Source: Chlorobiota bacterium (GTDB taxonomy: Bacteria; Bacteroidota; Ignavibacteria; Kapaibacteriales; UBA961). Taken from it: a stretch of DNA of 64,000 nt. Positions 1,050 through 54,198 of this stretch are shown in pieces (within the stretch, counting starts at the first letter, position 1; every line of letters starts with the position of its first letter). Below the pieces are notes generated by a model. It was not told the DNA's origin and ran no database searches. It was given only the letters and a program-made list of their open reading frames with translations. The stretch covers positions 124,001 to 188,000 of the forward strand of contig BJGZ01000002.1 in assembly GCA_014191195.1 (NCBI GenBank), read 5' to 3'. Position numbers and translations under genes: made by a program.

Positions 1050-2915
1050 ATGCAAACGGCAGTAGCTAATGCGAATGATATTCATAGTCATGATACTCAC
1101 CACGGTGCAGACCATGCTCATCATGAGCTCTCATTTATAAGAAAGTACATTTTTTCAACAGATCATAAAGTAATTGCCAAACAATTTATGGTAGTTTCAT
1201 TATTCTTCCTTTTTGTAGGTGGTCTGTTTGCGCTGATGATTAGATGGCAATTAGCATATCCTGGTTCAGCAATTCCGCTTATTGGTAATATATTACCAAC
1301 TAATTGGGTTTCTGATGGAGCAGTAACTGCTAATTTTTATACACAACTACTTACTCTTCATGGAACAGTGATGATATTCTATGTTATCATTCCATTGGCA
1401 GTAGGTATGTTTGGTAACTTCTGTATACCGTTGATGATTGGAACAGATGATATGGCATTGCCGAGATTGAATATGTTTTCATTTTGGTTGGTACCGCCTG
1501 CCGGATTAATACTGCTTTCAGGATTCTTTTATGATTCTGGTACAGCAGCTGCTGGTTGGACTGGTTATCCTCCATTGGGCCCAACATCTGGCCCTGGGCA
1601 AACTACATGGCTTGTTTCACTATTCATGATTGGTTTTTCATCAATCATGGGTGGTACAAATTATATGGCAACTGTTTTAAATAAGCGTGCTAAAGGAATG
1701 CAATTATTCCAAATGCCATTAACCGTATGGGGTTTATTTATCACAGCAATTCTTATTGTTTTAGGAACACCTGTATTAGCAGCAGCAATATCTATGCAGT
1801 TATGCGATCAGTATTTGCATACCGGTTTTTTTATGCCTGATAATTTATTAGTTACTGCTCCAGATAATACATATGTAACAAATGCATTTATTGCTCAGGG
1901 AAATCAGTTATTAGAGCATAAGCAATTATTAGGTGGTGGTGGACAACCAATTTTATGGCAACATTTATTTTGGTTCTATTCTCACCCAGCTGTGTATATC
2001 ATGATTTTACCAGGAATGGGAATAGTATCGGATGTTTTGTCAACGTTTGCCCGCAAGCCACTTTTTGGTTATAAGGCAATGATTTTTGCAATTATGGCTA
2101 TAGCATTTTTAGGCTTTCTTGTTTGGGGACATCATATGTTCCAATCAGGAATGAATCCTTTATTAGGCACAACCTTTATGCTTTCTACAATTGTTATTGC
2201 AGTGCCATCTGCTATTAAGATTTTCAATTGGTTAGGAACTATTTGGAAAGGTAATATCAGATTTACAGCTGCCAATATGAATGCTTTGGCATTTATTGCA
2301 ACATTTATTATTGGTGGATTAAGCGGTGTTTTTATGGCATCTGCACCTGTAGATATTTATATCCATGATACATATTTTATTGTAGCACATATTCACTATG
2401 TATTATTTGGTGGAGCTCTTTTTGCAATTTTTTCTGGCATATATTATTGGTTTCCAAAAATGTATGGTAAGATGCTTAGTGAAAATCTTGGTCGTAAGCA
2501 TTTTTACTGGTCTTTTATTTTCTTTAATTTGACCTTTTACCCTATGCATATTTTGGGGGTAGGTGGACATATGAGAAGAATATATAATCCATATATCTAT
2601 GAGTTTTTGCAACCATTACAACCAATGAATCAATTTGTAACATTTGCAGCTATTGTCTTGGGATTTTCTCAATTGATATTGATTGTCAATATATTTTGGT
2701 CATTAAAGTATGGTAAAGCAGCACCAAGAAATCCTTGGCAAGCTAATACATTAGAGTGGTCTGCACCAGCTCATCCAGGCCATGGTAATTTTGATACAGA
2801 CATTGTGGTATATCGTGGTCCTTACGAGTTTTCTGTTCCAGGAAGAGATTCTGATTTCTATCCGCAAACAGAACCGCCTTCAGAGAATGAAGTACCGATA
2901 CATTCTGGTCATTAA
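1050..2915 (+). CDS. coxA: Cytochrome c oxidase subunit I (type A2 haem-copper oxidase)
   Basis: Catalytic subunit that reduces O2 to water and pumps protons. Visible ligands are His104 (low-spin haem), His312, His361 and His362 (CuB), Tyr316 (Tyr cross-linked to CuB His), His447 (high-spin haem) and His449 (low-spin haem). The helix VI motif reads YSHPAVY, with Ala where type A1 enzymes carry the D-channel Glu (GHPEVY). The preceding Tyr310-Ser311 pair marks a type A2 oxidase as in Thermus caa3. The N-terminus (residues 10-26) is unusually His-rich, and about 30 extra residues lie at 262-292 before WQHLFW. Similar insertions are known in Bacteroidota, as far as I recall. Length 621 aa. It lies 30 nt after coxB. 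Confidence 0.97.
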   Translation: MQTAVANANDIHSHDTHHGADHAHHELSFIRKYIFSTDHKVIAKQFMVVSLFFLFVGGLFALMIRWQLAYPGSAIPLIGNILPTNWVSDGAVTANFYTQLLTLHGTVMIFYVIIPLAVGMFGNFCIPLMIGTDDMALPRLNMFSFWLVPPAGLILLSGFFYDSGTAAAGWTGYPPLGPTSGPGQTTWLVSLFMIGFSSIMGGTNYMATVLNKRAKGMQLFQMPLTVWGLFITAILIVLGTPVLAAAISMQLCDQYLHTGFFMPDNLLVTAPDNTYVTNAFIAQGNQLLEHKQLLGGGGQPILWQHLFWFYSHPAVYIMILPGMGIVSDVLSTFARKPLFGYKAMIFAIMAIAFLGFLVWGHHMFQSGMNPLLGTTFMLSTIVIAVPSAIKIFNWLGTIWKGNIRFTAANMNALAFIATFIIGGLSGVFMASAPVDIYIHDTYFIVAHIHYVLFGGALFAIFSGIYYWFPKMYGKMLSENLGRKHFYWSFIFFNLTFYPMHILGVGGHMRRIYNPYIYEFLQPLQPMNQFVTFAAIVLGFSQLILIVNIFWSLKYGKAAPRNPWQANTLEWSAPAHPGHGNFDTDIVVYRGPYEFSVPGRDSDFYPQTEPPSENEVPIHSGH

Positions 2916-48015: not shown

Positions 48016-48160
48016 ATGTCTTCCCAATAAAATATAAAATGAAGGGGCTAGTAGTTCCCCATTTGCTGCATATTCAAATTACTAAAAAAATATGCATTGT
48101 AAAATACTCTCATAATATTTTGTTTGATAGCATTTGTTTGTCATCAATAGAATCTTTAAT

Positions 48161-48179
48161 TTAGACTAAATCTAAATAA
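48161..48179. promoter_or_regulatory. Perfect 7-5-7 inverted repeat, candidate DtxR/IdeR-type metal operator
   Basis: ATTTAGA (48161-48167), spacer CTAAA, TCTAAAT (48173-48179). The 19-bp size and the TTTAG...CTAAA core resemble DtxR/IdeR/MntR-family sites (consensus of the form TTAGGTTAG-CTAACCTAA). It lies 41 nt upstream of the DUF4856 start, where a repressor could block the promoter. No regulator gene is in the window. Confidence 0.5.
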
Positions 48180-48220: not shown

Positions 48221-49297
48221 ATGATACGCATACTTATACCTTTATATACGACTATTTTAGTCTTGTTTTTATCATCATGTGTTGATAATTCAATTGCCCC
48301 TTTGAATACCCCATCGATTTATGATTCTACTCAATATTCTCATATTTCTAGTTCAACAATTAGGATGAGAGCGGATGTAAATACATTATTAGATACTATA
48401 CAGTCTGCTAGAATAAACGGAAGAGCCCCAGATTCATTAACATTATTTGAATTATTAAAGCCTTTTTCAACATTAGGAACAAGTACTTTTCAGAATACTA
48501 GTATAGGTTTTATACAAGAGTTTTCTAAAACGAATAATGGCATATATAATCCACGATTATCAATAGCAGAAAACAAAGAAGGTGGAGTGTTTGCGGGAAG
48601 AGTTTTTGATGAAAATGGACTAGAATATCAAGAGATAATCGAAAAACTATGTTTTGGGAATCTGTTTTATCATATGGCATCGCGTTTATCATTACATGAT
48701 AGTACCACGCATCTTTTCATAGCATTATTTGGGGCTCACCCTTCTTTTCCAAATTCTGATATCACACAAAGCAATCCTGATGTGTTTAGTGCAGCATATG
48801 CAGCAAGAAGAGATAAAAATGATGGAAATGGTTTTTACACCAATGCAAAGAAGGAATTAATTCGATTACAAGCTGCAATAAAAGCTGGAACTAATTATAA
48901 AGAGGATGCATTATCGGCAAGGAAGCAATTCTTTACTATATGGGAAAAATCTTTGATGGCATCTGCAATTTCATATTGTTATGCTGCACATGCAAAGTTT
49001 ATTCTTACAAATCCAAGCGATGAAGATCTTGCTTCAGGACTTCATGCTATTAATGAGTCAATAGGATTTGTACTAGCATATAAAGGAGTTTCAGAGAAAT
49101 TAATTTCTGATACAGAACTTGATGCGATACTTTCGCTCTTACATTCAATGCGTCCTTCACTATTTATAACAGACGCCTATAATACCACACCAGATATCCT
49201 AAAAGTTATAGGAAGGATTCAAATGGTTTATGGCTTTTCTTCTCAGCAATTAGAAGATTTTAAAATCAATTGGGTTACTGTTCAAAACAGAAAATAA
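48221..49297 (+). CDS. DUF4856-family lipoprotein
   Basis: 358-aa lipoprotein (lipobox LFLSSC, Cys20). The core GRVFDENGLEYQEIIEKLCFGNLFYHMA matches the DUF4856 pattern NGLEYxQxIEKGLMGA, followed by ALFGAHPSFP and FSAAYAARRDKNDG. The protein is mostly helical, reminiscent of imelysin-type folds. DUF4856 genes in Bacteroidota typically precede imelysin, HTTM and TonB receptor genes, exactly the order seen here. Role is unknown; binding of a metal or chelate at the cell surface is an inference. One nt separates it from the next gene. Confidence 0.82.
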   Translation: MIRILIPLYTTILVLFLSSCVDNSIAPLNTPSIYDSTQYSHISSSTIRMRADVNTLLDTIQSARINGRAPDSLTLFELLKPFSTLGTSTFQNTSIGFIQEFSKTNNGIYNPRLSIAENKEGGVFAGRVFDENGLEYQEIIEKLCFGNLFYHMASRLSLHDSTTHLFIALFGAHPSFPNSDITQSNPDVFSAAYAARRDKNDGNGFYTNAKKELIRLQAAIKAGTNYKEDALSARKQFFTIWEKSLMASAISYCYAAHAKFILTNPSDEDLASGLHAINESIGFVLAYKGVSEKLISDTELDAILSLLHSMRPSLFITDAYNTTPDILKVIGRIQMVYGFSSQQLEDFKINWVTVQNRK

Positions 49298-49298
49298 T

Positions 49299-50393
49299 AT
49301 GAAATATATACTTGTCATATTGATATTACTGCAATTCTCTTGTACGGGGAATGCTCCATCTAATCCAGATTCTCAATTTGATAGAACGCGAATGCTTGAT
49401 TTTACTGCCAAACAGATTATAATACCAATGTATGCTGATGTATTGAGCCATTCATATACTTTGGATAGTTTGTGTGCAAACTTTATGCTTCAACCAAATG
49501 AGACAATGGTTATAGAGATGAGACAAGCATGGAGATCCTTGGCAATTTCATGGCAATATTGCTCGATGTTTGATTTTGGCCCTGCCGAATTTTCTGATGG
49601 AACCCTTTTTGAAAATATTGGCATATATCCTGTTTCAGTTACAAAGATGATAAGTAAGATAGAGACAAAAGATACCCTGTTTGCTAATTTTGATAGAGAT
49701 ACCAGAGGTATTTATGCAATTGAATATCTATTGTTTAATGATTCCTTGAATACATATAAGTTGTTGACAAATAAAGCAAATAACGATGTAATTTATCTAA
49801 AAAAATTGATTCAACATGTCATAATAAAAGTACAAACAGTGCATAATGCTTGGATTAATGGATATTCACAAACATTTATTCAAAACACTGGTGTACAGGC
49901 AGGATCTTCTATTTCTGAATTGTACAATTCATTTGTTCATTCATATGAATTAATGAAAAACTATCAATGCGGATTACCTTTTGGATTAAAGGTTGGCCAA
50001 GTATCAACAGAGCCAACAAAGACAGAGGGATTTTATAGTGGAATTTCGACAGAATTACTGTATCATCATAATCAGGCATTATTATATTTTTGGCGAGGAT
50101 ATGCAAGGCTAAGTCCTCTATCAAGTCTGAGTGGTATAGGATTTAAAGAGTATTTGTTGTCTATAGCAACTGGAAAACAATTAGTAGAAGATACTGAATA
50201 TCAATGGGAACAGATTTCAAAACAAATATCACTATTAGACAGATCGATACCATTATCAGTGATGATAGATCAAAAAATGCCTATTCTTTTAGATGTATTT
50301 ACAGAATTATCTAAACATACACATTTCTTGAAAAGTGATATGTCTTCTCTATTAGGTATTTCAATTACATATACTAGCAATGATGGTGATTAG
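49299..50393 (+). CDS. Imelysin-like (M75 peptidase-family) lipoprotein
   Basis: 364-aa lipoprotein (lipobox LQFSC). The helical core includes MRQAWRSLAISWQYCSMFDFGPAEF, typical of imelysin repeats (WxxW-type helices followed by GPxxF), and the site TRGIYAIEYLLFND. The classical imelysin motif GxHxxE is present only as GIYAIE, with Tyr in place of His, as I recall for other lipoprotein members of this branch. Imelysin-like proteins are usually linked to iron uptake. It is translation-coupled with its neighbours and overlaps the HTTM gene by one base. Confidence 0.85.
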   Translation: MKYILVILILLQFSCTGNAPSNPDSQFDRTRMLDFTAKQIIIPMYADVLSHSYTLDSLCANFMLQPNETMVIEMRQAWRSLAISWQYCSMFDFGPAEFSDGTLFENIGIYPVSVTKMISKIETKDTLFANFDRDTRGIYAIEYLLFNDSLNTYKLLTNKANNDVIYLKKLIQHVIIKVQTVHNAWINGYSQTFIQNTGVQAGSSISELYNSFVHSYELMKNYQCGLPFGLKVGQVSTEPTKTEGFYSGISTELLYHHNQALLYFWRGYARLSPLSSLSGIGFKEYLLSIATGKQLVEDTEYQWEQISKQISLLDRSIPLSVMIDQKMPILLDVFTELSKHTHFLKSDMSSLLGISITYTSNDGD

Positions 50394-51742
50394 TGCAATT
50401 CTTGCAATCATTATCTGCTCCAGTTTCTTCTGTTTCATTGGGAATATTTAGAATTTCCTTTGGTGCTTTGATATTGTTAAGTACCATTCGTTTTATAGCT
50501 TTAGGCTGGATAGAAGAACAAATAATAAAACCTAAAATACATTTTCAGTATTATGGTTTTGAATGGATAACTGTTCCTTCGGCATTCTATGTATATATTC
50601 TGTATTCTGTATTAATCATTGCTTCATTCTGTGTAATGATAGGCTATAAATATCGCATAATGAGCGTACTATTATTTTTAGCCTTTACATATACTGAATT
50701 ATGGGATATATCCTATTATCTTAATCATTATTATGCAGTAAGCTTATGCAGCTTTTTATTATGCTTTTTACCTGCCCATTGCATATTCTCTGTCGATAGC
50801 ACATCTAAACCATCTATTTATCAAGCACTTATACCAAGATATTATATATTACTTTTACAATTTCAAATTGCTATCATTTATCTGTATGCTGGAATAGCAA
50901 AGATTCAGTATGATTGGTTGATAGAGGCTTTACCTCTTTCTTTATGGCTTCCTTCGCATGGTGATATGCCAATTATTGGTAATGTATTATCTGCACGCTG
51001 GACAGCATATGTGTTCTCGTGGTTTGGAATGCTGTATGATTGTACCATTCCCCTGTTTTTATCAATACAAACTACAAGAATATATGCATATATAGCTGTT
51101 ATATGCTTTCATACAATAACAGGGATATTGTTTCAGATTGGAGTATTTCCTCTAGTAATGATAGTGTTGACATTAATATTTTTTCCTCCAGAACAGCTAT
51201 TACAGATAATAAACAGAACTCTCACTGTGTTTAATACTTCAGTTAAGGTAAGAGCTGATATAACTAAGTATACAAGCTTTTCTATTCATCCAATTATCTA
51301 TGGTTCATTGATTGCATATTGTCTATTTCAACTATTATTTCCTTTCAGATATGTATTATATCCCGGTAATGTTTTTTGGACAGAGCAAGGCTATAGATTT
51401 GGTTGGCGAGTAATGTTAATTGAAAAGTCTGGATATACTCAATTTACTATCAAAGACTCATTAACAGGAAAAAAAGGCATTATCGATAATGCTGAATGGC
51501 TAACTGATCATCAAGAAAAGCAAATGAGTATGCAGCCAGATTTGATAGTACAATTCGCGCATACTTTATCTACCTATTATCAAAAGAATGGATATACTCA
51601 TCCGATTATTACTGCAGATTCATGGATAACATTGAATGGCAGAAAATCATATAGATTTATTGATCCTTCTATAAATTTAGCAAGTATCAATGATTCATGG
51701 TTTCATAAAGAATGGATATTATCAGAAGGAGTATCTAAATGA
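50393..51742 (+). CDS. HTTM-domain membrane protein (vitamin K-dependent gamma-carboxylase-like)
   Basis: 449 aa with about ten hydrophobic segments. The HTTM domain signature is visible as LGIFRISFGALILL, FTYTELWDISYYLNHYYAVSL and LLLQFQIAIIYLYAGIAKIQYDWL, followed by a soluble C-terminal region (about 310-449, FRYVLYPGNVFWTEQGYRFGWRVML). The family is named after vitamin K-dependent gamma-carboxylase, but bacterial members have unproven chemistry. It starts with GTG 50393 overlapping the imelysin stop (TAG), and the TonB receptor gene overlaps its end by 4 nt. Confidence 0.88.
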   Translation: MQFLQSLSAPVSSVSLGIFRISFGALILLSTIRFIALGWIEEQIIKPKIHFQYYGFEWITVPSAFYVYILYSVLIIASFCVMIGYKYRIMSVLLFLAFTYTELWDISYYLNHYYAVSLCSFLLCFLPAHCIFSVDSTSKPSIYQALIPRYYILLLQFQIAIIYLYAGIAKIQYDWLIEALPLSLWLPSHGDMPIIGNVLSARWTAYVFSWFGMLYDCTIPLFLSIQTTRIYAYIAVICFHTITGILFQIGVFPLVMIVLTLIFFPPEQLLQIINRTLTVFNTSVKVRADITKYTSFSIHPIIYGSLIAYCLFQLLFPFRYVLYPGNVFWTEQGYRFGWRVMLIEKSGYTQFTIKDSLTGKKGIIDNAEWLTDHQEKQMSMQPDLIVQFAHTLSTYYQKNGYTHPIITADSWITLNGRKSYRFIDPSINLASINDSWFHKEWILSEGVSK

Positions 51743-54198
51743 AGATATTCTTGATAATCATCTCGATATGTATACATGCACACGCATTTGGATATTCGCA
51801 TATAACCAGCAATGAGATACTAACATCAAAAACAGTAAAAATATTGTGCATGATTATGTCATCTGAAACTCAGACAGCAATTCCATTTGCAAAAATTTAC
51901 TTTTTTGATGACTTGCAGAAAGTAATGCGATCAGATAGCAATGGAATCTTCCAAAAAATTATAGTATGTAGAAAAGATAGTATAGCATTAAGAATACAAG
52001 CAAATGGATATGAGTCTATTATTGCTACTATAGCATGCAGTGAAGAAAAACAGATGATAATGCTTCAAACCAAAAAAATGCAGGTTAAAGACATCATCGT
52101 GAATGCAGAGAAGAACTCATTAATAAGTGCAAATAAAGTTGAATCAATACAAGAATCTGCTATTTATGAAGCTAAAAAGACAGAATTAATTATTCCAGAT
52201 TTATTGAATCCTAATAAAGCAGTAATGCTAGCAAGACAATTGTTTTCTAGGGTACCAGGATTGAATATTTGGGAAAGCGATCAAGCTGGACTTCAGCTTG
52301 GTATTGGAGGCAGAGGATTGAGTCCAAATCGTACAGCCCATTTTAATACAAGAATGAATGGCTATGATATAGCAGCAGATCCACTTGGTTATCCAGAATC
52401 ATATTTTACTCCGCCAATAGAAGCAATTGAAAGAATCGAGATAGTTCGAGGGGCTGCTTCGCTTCAATATGGACCTCAATTTGGTGGTATGATTAATTTT
52501 AAGATGAAAAAAGGTATAGATTCTGTGCCATTGCATGCAGAATTCAGAATGAATGGCGGATCTTTTGGATTAATGGGTATATCTGCATTAGTTGGAGGAG
52601 AATCTAAAGGATTAAATTATATCAGTTTTTACTCATATAAACAAGGCAATGGATGGCGTCCGAATTCCGATTTTTCAGCTCATACAGTGTATTCTGCTTT
52701 ATCATATAATATAAGTGAACATCTGACGCTAACATTTGATGTGACAAATCATCATTCACTAAGTCAGCAACCAGGTGGTTTAACAGATAGGCAATTTCAG
52801 GTAGATCCTTCGCAATCAAGTAGATCAAGAAATTGGTTCTTGATAGATTGGCAGATATATGCTTTGAATATCCTCTATGAAATATCGCCTATAACCAGAA
52901 TACATTCTCGAACATTTTCTGTTATAGCACAAAGATCATCTGTAGGTAATCTTCAGAATATTTCAGTGTTAGATAATGGAAAAGAAAGAACATTAATAGA
53001 TGGTGTTTTTGCAAATATTGGCAATGAAACACGGTTAATGCATACAATTTTTATCAATGATATACCGGCTAATATTGTATTGGGTGCAAGAATATATCAA
53101 GGATATTCAGTTCAAAAACAAGGATTTGGTTCAAAAGGATCGGATGCAGATTTTACATACTTAGATCAAGATAATCCGGAGCAATTATTGTATAAAAATC
53201 CAGGTAAAAATATTGCAGGATTTCTTGAATGTGTAATCAGGCCCACAGAAAACTGGAGCATTGTTCCAGGTATACGAGTTGAATATATTGCCACATATGC
53301 CAATGGATGGTATAAAGATAGAATAGTAGATCTTTCTGGTAATTTGGTACAATCATCTACATATAATGAACAGAAATCAAATCTACGATCCTTTGGATTG
53401 TTTGGTCTTGGAACAAGCTATGTATTTGATAATGGACTTGAATTATATGCTAATTATGCGCAAAATTACAGAGCAATGACATTTAGTGATATGCGCATTG
53501 TTAATCCAAATTTTATTGTTGATACTAATTTATCTGATGAAAAAGGATTTAATGCAGATCTAGGAATTCGTGGCTCTTTATTTAACGGCTTATTCTATAG
53601 CGATATTAGTTGCTTTTATTTAGAATATGATAAAAGGATAGGAACAATCTTAGCAGCAGATAAAGCCCCTTACTATATACCATATAGATTAAGAACCAAT
53701 ATTGGATCATCTAGAACGATTGGGATTGAAGCAATTGTAGAAACAGATATATGGAAACTGTGGATTGATGATGATTCAAGAAGTGTAAAGGCATTTATCA
53801 ATGTTTCATATCTAGATGGAATATATACTTCTTCTTTGCAGACAGGAATAAAAGGCAAACAAGTAGAACAAGTATCTCCTTTTACATTAAGGACAGGATT
53901 ACAATATGAACAAGATAAACTAAAAGCAAGTATTCAATATTCTTATGTGTATAAACAATATTCAGATGCAACCAATGCTGAATATACATCAAATGCTGTG
54001 ATTGGTTTAATCCCCTCTTATTCGATTATGGATATTTCATTGAGTTATAGACTATTACAATCATTGATTGTTGATATGCATATACAAAATGTATTTAATG
54101 AATCATACTTTACAAGAAGAGCCGAATCATATCCAGGACCAGGCATTTTACCTTCAGATCCCAGAAATATTACCTGTAGTATTCAATATTCATTATAA
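51739..54198 (+). CDS. TonB-dependent outer-membrane receptor
   Basis: 819 aa. A signal peptide is followed by a carboxypeptidase-regulatory-like beta domain (IPFAKIYFFDDLQKVMRSDSNGIF), a plug domain (ARQLFSRVPGLNIWESDQAGLQLGIGGRGL, IEAIERIEIVRGAASLQYGPQFGGMINF) and a 22-strand type barrel ending SDPRNITCSIQYSL. It imports a substrate through the outer membrane with TonB energy; the DUF4856/imelysin/HTTM partners suggest iron or another metal chelate, similar to FecA-like receptors. Its stop codon touches that of the convergent OmpA gene. Confidence 0.93.
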   Translation: MKIFLIIISICIHAHAFGYSHITSNEILTSKTVKILCMIMSSETQTAIPFAKIYFFDDLQKVMRSDSNGIFQKIIVCRKDSIALRIQANGYESIIATIACSEEKQMIMLQTKKMQVKDIIVNAEKNSLISANKVESIQESAIYEAKKTELIIPDLLNPNKAVMLARQLFSRVPGLNIWESDQAGLQLGIGGRGLSPNRTAHFNTRMNGYDIAADPLGYPESYFTPPIEAIERIEIVRGAASLQYGPQFGGMINFKMKKGIDSVPLHAEFRMNGGSFGLMGISALVGGESKGLNYISFYSYKQGNGWRPNSDFSAHTVYSALSYNISEHLTLTFDVTNHHSLSQQPGGLTDRQFQVDPSQSSRSRNWFLIDWQIYALNILYEISPITRIHSRTFSVIAQRSSVGNLQNISVLDNGKERTLIDGVFANIGNETRLMHTIFINDIPANIVLGARIYQGYSVQKQGFGSKGSDADFTYLDQDNPEQLLYKNPGKNIAGFLECVIRPTENWSIVPGIRVEYIATYANGWYKDRIVDLSGNLVQSSTYNEQKSNLRSFGLFGLGTSYVFDNGLELYANYAQNYRAMTFSDMRIVNPNFIVDTNLSDEKGFNADLGIRGSLFNGLFYSDISCFYLEYDKRIGTILAADKAPYYIPYRLRTNIGSSRTIGIEAIVETDIWKLWIDDDSRSVKAFINVSYLDGIYTSSLQTGIKGKQVEQVSPFTLRTGLQYEQDKLKASIQYSYVYKQYSDATNAEYTSNAVIGLIPSYSIMDISLSYRLLQSLIVDMHIQNVFNESYFTRRAESYPGPGILPSDPRNITCSIQYSL

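What the first reader, a model, noticed from the sequence alone, without database searches (positions are those of the whole stretch)
48221..54198. Uncharacterised four-gene uptake cassette: DUF4856, imelysin-like, HTTM membrane protein, TonB receptor
The four genes are packed with spacings of +1, -1 and -4 nt, so they act together. Two helical lipoproteins, a gamma-carboxylase-like membrane protein and an outer-membrane receptor form no well-understood pathway. The HTTM protein could chemically modify a cargo or a partner. This is my best candidate for a poorly described system in the window.
Basis: partly seen in the sequence, partly recalled or inferred. Interest (0 to 1): 0.6.

Follow-up and report, generated by a model that had tools for sequence, protein, structure and literature searches.

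The report
Iron-uptake operon with vitamin-K-carboxylase-like enzyme
Four tightly packed bacterial genes, kept in the same order across the Bacteroidota phylum and very likely switched on when iron is short, pair an iron-uptake receptor and two lipoproteins with a relative of the human vitamin K clotting-factor enzyme whose reaction centre is intact, which gives a testable job to a puzzling family of bacterial enzymes.

Summary
In detail: four ORFs at 48221-54198 (+), spacings +1/-1/-4, encode a DUF4856-family lipoprotein (A), an imelysin-fold lipoprotein (B), an HTTM/GGCX-like membrane protein (C) and a TonB-dependent receptor (D). The cassette is real and widespread: 84 of 100 related loci, from Kapabacteria to Flavobacteriia, keep A-B-C-D in order. 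It is an iron operon. A 19-bp palindrome 44 bp upstream of A recurs upstream of A across the phylum (about 350-fold over the rest of the loci); in this genome the other clear promoter copy precedes feoAB, and elsewhere the box precedes TonB receptors, feoB, suf and hemA genes. The same four annotations are already listed, but not treated as an operon, among iron-starvation-induced Fur targets of Riemerella anatipestifer. So the regulation is partly known; the system is not described. C carries the whole GGCX reaction centre (K218, H160, N159, quinone-pocket Phe/Trp), near-invariant in 101 sequences; no VKOR is encoded here. Best explanation: Fur-controlled TonB-dependent uptake of an iron source, in which C uses menaquinol to modify A and/or B. 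The iron part is well supported; the modification is inferred.

The parts
48159..48177 (.). 19-bp palindromic Fur-type operator ATTTAGACTAAATCTAAAT, about 44 bp before the ATG of A
   Evidence: Only exact copy in the genome; conserved upstream of A in about 80% of 85 loci against 7% of shuffles; about 350-fold enriched there; same form as the Riemerella Fur box, tested by EMSA at other promoters (PMC5609570)
48221..49297 (+). A: DUF4856-family lipoprotein, 358 aa, all-helical
   Evidence: 30 of 36 family members hit PF16148; AF2 model pLDDT 93.8; invariant lipobox Cys20
49299..50393 (+). B: imelysin-fold (M75) lipoprotein of the GxxxxE variant, 364 aa, ends in conserved DGD
   Evidence: PF09375 67.7 bits; AF2 model matches ICMP 7xrx Z 32.3 and 3pf0 Z 32.2; motif and C terminus
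50393..51742 (+). C: HTTM/GGCX-like integral membrane protein with VKGC lumenal (periplasmic) domain, 449 aa
   Evidence: PF05090 243.7 bits, PF22777 182.4 bits; 226 bits to human GGCX structures over profile 4-437; reaction-centre residues near-invariant
51739..54198 (+). D: TonB-dependent outer-membrane receptor, siderophore-receptor-like, 819 aa
   Evidence: PF07715 and PF00593; best NCBIfam TIGR01783 132.7 bits, below its cut-off of 223.5

Best explanation
The cassette is an iron-starvation-induced operon under a Fur-type operator. D imports an iron source (probably a ferric chelate) across the outer membrane; A and B are lipoproteins that bind or relay the iron or the chelate in the envelope. 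C, in the inner membrane with its lumenal-type domain in the periplasm, is a menaquinol- and oxygen-using enzyme of the GGCX type that modifies the partner lipoproteins (probably carboxylation or oxidation of acidic residues in A and/or B) as they are exported, equipping them for metal binding. SHOWN HERE: gene content, operon order, phylum-wide conservation, operator and its iron regulon, imelysin fold of B, intact GGCX reaction centre of C. PUBLISHED: iron induction of the corresponding genes in R. anatipestifer. INFERRED: the identity of the cargo, that C is catalytically active, and that A or B is its substrate.
For: Conserved A-B-C-D order in 84/100 loci. 34 of 37 sampled genomes with a DUF4856 hit also carry a C relative, against 55 of 247 overall. 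Operator conserved; in G000 it otherwise lies 35 bp upstream of feoA-feoB; one FUR protein in the genome. At 30 sites elsewhere in the phylum, neighbouring genes include 9 TonB receptors, 3 SufBD, 2 FeoB, 2 glutamyl-tRNA reductases and 3 AraC regulators. RAYM_09779/84/89/94 (TonB receptor, gamma-carboxylase, imelysin, hypothetical) rise 2.1-3.1-fold on iron restriction. Imelysins in general are Fur-linked iron proteins (PMC3143127). A canonical imelysin and/or DHOR di-haem oxidoreductase sits within about 7 kb of the cassette in 10/100 loci, in several arrangements, three times inserted between B and C. GGCX base K218 = K170, N159 = N111, H160 = H112, quinone pocket F286/F294/F299/W223 = F239/F247/F252/W175, all in 100-101 of 101 (residue roles from PMC12589487).
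Against: No VKOR in this genome, and VKOR is not enriched in cassette-bearing genomes (9 of 48 against 49 of 199), so a classical recycling vitamin K cycle is not conserved with it. K217, which couples GGCX to its propeptide-binding domain, is replaced by Ala. No substrate has been identified, and the same reaction-centre residues are present in the three other HTTM proteins checked, so they do not point to A or B. In R. anatipestifer the iron response persists in the fur mutant (2.7-3.1-fold) and derepression in iron-replete medium is weak (1.4-1.9-fold), so Fur may not be the only regulator. That RAYM_09794 is a DUF4856 protein rests on gene position, not on sequence compared here.
Confidence: 0.5

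Rival explanations
1. Same iron-uptake operon, but C acts on the imported chelator (or on menaquinol itself) rather than on a protein: for example menaquinol-driven carboxylation or oxygenation of the ligand to release iron.
For: Reaction centre intact; the propeptide-coupling Lys217 is lost, so no propeptide binding is evident; D resembles siderophore and ferric-citrate receptors.
Against: In the human enzyme vitamin K epoxidation needs a Glu substrate (PMC9146348). The only neighbours kept with C besides the receptor are two proteins, A and B.
Confidence: 0.2
2. Same iron-uptake operon, but C is not a chemical modifier: a quinol-linked redox or oxygen-consuming component, or a membrane anchor or assembly factor.
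For: No VKOR, no evident substrate. Canonical imelysins pair with DHOR peroxidases (PMC3143127), while this genome has an imelysin but no DHOR, so C could fill a redox role.
Against: Near-invariant catalytic base and Glu-pocket residues at about 50% mean identity imply selection for GGCX-type chemistry.
Confidence: 0.18
3. The cargo is another metal or a haem (copper, manganese, haem) and iron starvation is an indirect cue.
For: Imelysin-type proteins can bind several metals in vitro (own knowledge); the Leptospira operon LIMLP_04285-04270, of superficially similar layout, is PerR-controlled and affects superoxide tolerance (PMC7567364).
Against: The operator is shared with feoAB, suf, hemA and TonB receptors; Riemerella induction is by iron restriction.
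Confidence: 0.12

Closest known systems
Riemerella anatipestifer RAYM_09779-09794 (Fur and iron regulon, PMC5609570 Table 4)
   Same: Same four annotations in the same consecutive order (TonB receptor, vitamin K-dependent gamma-carboxylase, imelysin lipoprotein, hypothetical); induced 2.1-3.1-fold by iron restriction
   Different: Listed as single genes, not described as an operon or system; sequences not compared here; fourth gene only 'hypothetical'
Pseudomonas PA4370-PA4373 type imelysin-DHOR operons and EfeUOB (PMC3143127)
   Same: Imelysin-fold envelope proteins in Fur-regulated or iron-transport operons; B has the GxxxxE motif of the IPPA/PA4372 family
   Different: No DHOR in this cassette or genome, no cupredoxin domain on B; adds DUF4856, an HTTM enzyme and a TonB receptor
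Human gamma-glutamyl carboxylase (GGCX)
   Same: C aligns over profile positions 4-437 at 226 bits including the lumenal domain; catalytic base, Glu pocket and quinone pocket conserved
   Different: C is 449 aa against 758; K217 is Ala; no VKOR in the genome; substrate unknown
MbnP-MbnH-MbnT copper uptake (own knowledge, works-like comparison only)
   Same: A TonB receptor encoded with a periplasmic metal-binding partner and an enzyme that oxidatively modifies that partner
   Different: Different families throughout; the enzyme there is a di-haem protein, here GGCX-like; copper there, iron here

Membership tests
GGCX / HTTM-VKGC family | HTTM transmembrane domain plus VKGC lumenal domain | tested here: met
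   PF05090 243.7 bits and PF22777 182.4 bits; GGCX structures 226 bits
GGCX / HTTM-VKGC family | Catalytic base Lys218 and Glu-pocket residues N159/H160 | tested here: met
   K170, N111, H112 in 101 of 101
GGCX / HTTM-VKGC family | Vitamin K-dependent Glu carboxylation activity | not testable with these tools
   Needs biochemistry
Vitamin K cycle | VKOR partner in the genome | tested here: not met
   No PF07884 match in G000; not enriched in cassette genomes
Imelysin (M75) superfamily | Imelysin fold and family score | tested here: met
   67.7 bits; Z 32.3 to 7xrx, 32.2 to 3pf0, 30.5 to 4ecg
Canonical ICMP/IrpA imelysins | GxHxxE motif | tested here: not met
   GIYAIE in the window; His at that place in only 3 of 97 rows: GxxxxE variant, as in IPPA/PA4372
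Imelysin-DHOR operons | DHOR (PF06537) partner in the genome | tested here: not met
   None in G000; present in 18 of 48 cassette-class genomes
DUF4856 (PF16148) | Pfam match of the window protein itself | tested here: not met
   No hit
DUF4856 (PF16148) | Homology to DUF4856 proteins at the same operon position | tested here: met
   30 of 36 alignable relatives match
DUF4856 as an imelysin-fold protein | Structural match of A to solved imelysins | tested here: inconclusive
   Not among matches for A though the same search finds them readily for B; profile comparison weak, 76% over 64 columns
TonB-dependent receptor | Plug and beta-barrel domains | tested here: met
TIGR01783 siderophore receptor | Curated score cut-off | tested here: not met
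   132.7 against 223.5 bits
Fur regulon | Fur-type operator at the promoter and a FUR protein in the genome | tested here: met
   other sites of the same pattern lie at iron genes
Fur regulon | Direct Fur binding to this promoter | not testable with these tools
   EMSA exists only for other R. anatipestifer promoters

The most novel reading that the evidence does not exclude
A bacterial vitamin K (menaquinol)-dependent carboxylase that makes gamma-carboxyglutamate, or an equivalent acidic modification, in an iron-handling lipoprotein on Fur demand: a physiological role for the bacterial GGCX family and a link between Gla chemistry and iron acquisition.
Probability: 0.25. Interest if true: 0.85.

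Novelty: new variant of a known kind. Interest (0 to 1): 0.6.

Why it matters
Bacterial relatives of the vitamin K-dependent carboxylase have had no clear job. Finding a near-invariant GGCX reaction centre locked in a four-gene, iron-regulated uptake operon across a phylum supplies candidate substrates (two neighbouring lipoproteins), a growth condition (iron starvation) and a cofactor these bacteria are expected to have (menaquinol), so the question becomes directly testable. It would also add a protein-modifying enzyme to the parts list of TonB-dependent metal uptake.

Tried and rejected
(1) The conserved C-terminal DGD of B (95 of 97) as an HTTM-specific modification tag: rejected as specific, because the solved imelysin-like protein 3pf0 also ends in DGD. 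(2) DUF4856 as a second imelysin: no support, inconclusive. (3) Testing the oxygen requirement through COX1: uninformative, 236 of 247 genomes have it. (4) VKOR as obligate partner: not supported. (5) DtxR-type control: the only Fe_dep_repr_C match in the genome is a domain fused to a metal ABC-type permease, so Fur is the better candidate. (6) Leptospira operon LIMLP_04285-04270 as the same cassette: layout similar in text, but no Leptospira sequence could be compared; left as a lead. (7) HTTM proteins on plasmids: in Paracoccus and Bernardetia not next to a cassette. (9) Viral fold library for A: nothing.

Full report
OBSERVATION. Four ORFs on the + strand occupy 48221-54198 with spacings of +1, -1 and -4 nt. 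Pfam assigns B to the imelysins (PF09375, 67.7 bits), C to HTTM (243.7) plus the VKGC lumenal domain (182.4), and D to TonB-dependent receptors. The window copy of A has no Pfam match, but an alignment of 36 proteins from the same operon position gives 30 DUF4856 matches. The window belongs to a 2.41-Mb genome in 29 contigs whose close named relatives are Kapabacteria and Ignavibacteria MAGs.

CONSERVATION. C relatives occur in 16 of 41 nearest genomes and 55 of 247 genomes drawn across the phylum. Among 100 loci (20 from whole genomes, 80 from named contigs; a few are the same locus met twice) 84 have A-B-C-D in the same order and strand; most exceptions are at contig ends or lack a detectable A. 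Source groups include Kapabacteria, Thermochlorobacteriaceae, Flavobacteriaceae, Cytophagales, Saprospiraceae, Chitinophagales, Sphingobacteriales and Rhodothermaceae. DUF4856 was found in 37 of 247 genomes, 34 of which also have a C relative. The four distance matrices agree, r = 0.72-0.87, although no null was computed and shared phylogeny alone can give high r.

IRON CONTROL. Upstream of A lies ATTTAGACTAAATCTAAAT (48159-48177). Scored against TTTAGAN5TCTAAA, 81% of 85 upstream regions have at least 10 of 12 matches against 7% of first-order shuffles, and sites with 11 or more matches are about 350-fold denser in the 150 bp before A than in the rest of the loci. The consensus was taken from the window copy, so the other loci are the test. 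The form equals the Riemerella Fur box ATTTAGAATTATTCTAAAT, tested by EMSA at four other promoters (PMC5609570). In G000 the exact box is unique; of two further places with two mismatches, one lies 35 bp upstream of feoA-feoB and the other near carA. The genome has one FUR protein. Across the phylum the pattern with up to one mismatch occurs in 110 of 247 genomes; 38 neighbouring proteins of 30 sites include 9 with a TonB plug, 3 SufBD, 2 FeoB, 2 glutamyl-tRNA reductases, 3 AraC regulators and a DUF4856 protein. So the box is very probably an iron-regulon operator.

PUBLISHED PRECEDENT. In R. anatipestifer, RAYM_09779 (TonB receptor), 09784 (vitamin K-dependent gamma-carboxylase), 09789 (imelysin) and 09794 (hypothetical) are induced 2.11-, 2.64-, 3.07- and 2.41-fold by iron restriction, and 1.36-1.93-fold in iron-replete fur mutant cells. 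The response to iron persists in the fur mutant, so another input is possible. The table and passages read here list the four as separate genes. In the paper library searched, no listed paper contains the term DUF4856. Most subscription papers are not held, so this is a limited novelty check.

PROTEIN B. The AF2 model (pLDDT 91.9) matches ICMP 7xrx (Z 32.3, 321 residues, 2.6 A), 3pf0 (Z 32.2) and 4ecg (Z 30.5), then EfeO and EfeM (Z 21-22). It lacks the motif His (GxxxxE), like the IPPA/PA4372 family (PMC3143127). It ends in DGD in 95 of 97 rows, a feature shared with 3pf0.

PROTEIN A. Confident all-helical model (pLDDT 93.8) with no clear solved relative: best Foldseek E 0.2, best Z 7.8 to a helical bundle. 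This does not show a new fold.

PROTEIN C. The profile aligns with human GGCX over 4-437 at 226 bits. Mapping residues named in the cryo-EM study (PMC12589487) gives K218 = K170, N159 = N111, H160 = H112, W223 = W175, F286 = F239, F294 = F247, F299 = F252, A214 = A166; all are identical in 100-101 of 101 sequences, whereas K217 is Ala in most. Three further HTTM proteins (Paracoccus, Bernardetia, Persicobacter plasmids) keep the same residues, so the centre is a family property. VKOR is absent here and is found in 9 of 48 cassette-class genomes against 49 of 199 others. 'Cassette-class' here means a C match with E of 1e-100 or better, plus the split G037 copy.

ADDED PARTS. In three Saprospiraceae-type loci (L072, L075, L078) DHOR, in two of them with a canonical GxHxxE imelysin, lies between B and C. 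In all, 10 of 100 loci have an imelysin and/or DHOR within about 7 kb, in inserted, divergent, downstream or upstream positions. Two of the ten (L056, L099) appear to be copies of one locus, so independent cases are fewer than ten.

MECHANISM. Well supported: an iron-starvation-induced TonB uptake operon (about 0.9). Inferred: A and B bind or relay iron; C is active with menaquinol as its quinol; C modifies A or B. I place about 0.5 on the full statement. The nearest works-like analogue, from own knowledge, is MbnPH with MbnT in copper uptake.

LIMITS. No expression, binding or mass data were available here. Nothing identifies the iron source, the substrate of C, or its product.

Noticed in passing
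L072:4363-6932, L075:4015-6958, L078:1254-2738: Canonical imelysin and/or DHOR di-haem oxidoreductase genes inserted inside the cassette between B and C in Saprospiraceae-type loci.
   Followed up: yes
window 49299-50393, C terminus of B: The last three residues are DGD in 95 of 97 relatives and in PDB 3pf0; an unexplained, very strongly conserved extreme C terminus.
   Followed up: partly
L012 (G023) and L016/L017 (G037): HTTM genes with an in-frame stop or split into two frames: possible decay of the cassette, or assembly error, in some relatives.
   Followed up: no
L150:325-1725: Metal ABC-type permease fused to a DtxR C-terminal-type domain, about 4.5 kb from the single FUR gene of this genome.
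   Followed up: partly
G253:C1:1487658-1490346: Two tandem DUF4856 genes in one genome, suggesting duplication of A.
   Followed up: no
L148 (Persicobacter pPP1), L146 (Paracoccus p1): HTTM/GGCX-like genes on large plasmids; in Paracoccus beside a DUF393 gene and not in a cassette, yet with the same reaction-centre residues.
   Followed up: partly
G045:C1:1111123-1178280: Three exact copies of the palindromic operator within 67 kb of a genome without a C relative: a possible iron-regulated region.
   Followed up: no
window 1173-2657: A haem-copper oxidase subunit I (COX1) gene lies near the start of the window.
   Followed up: no
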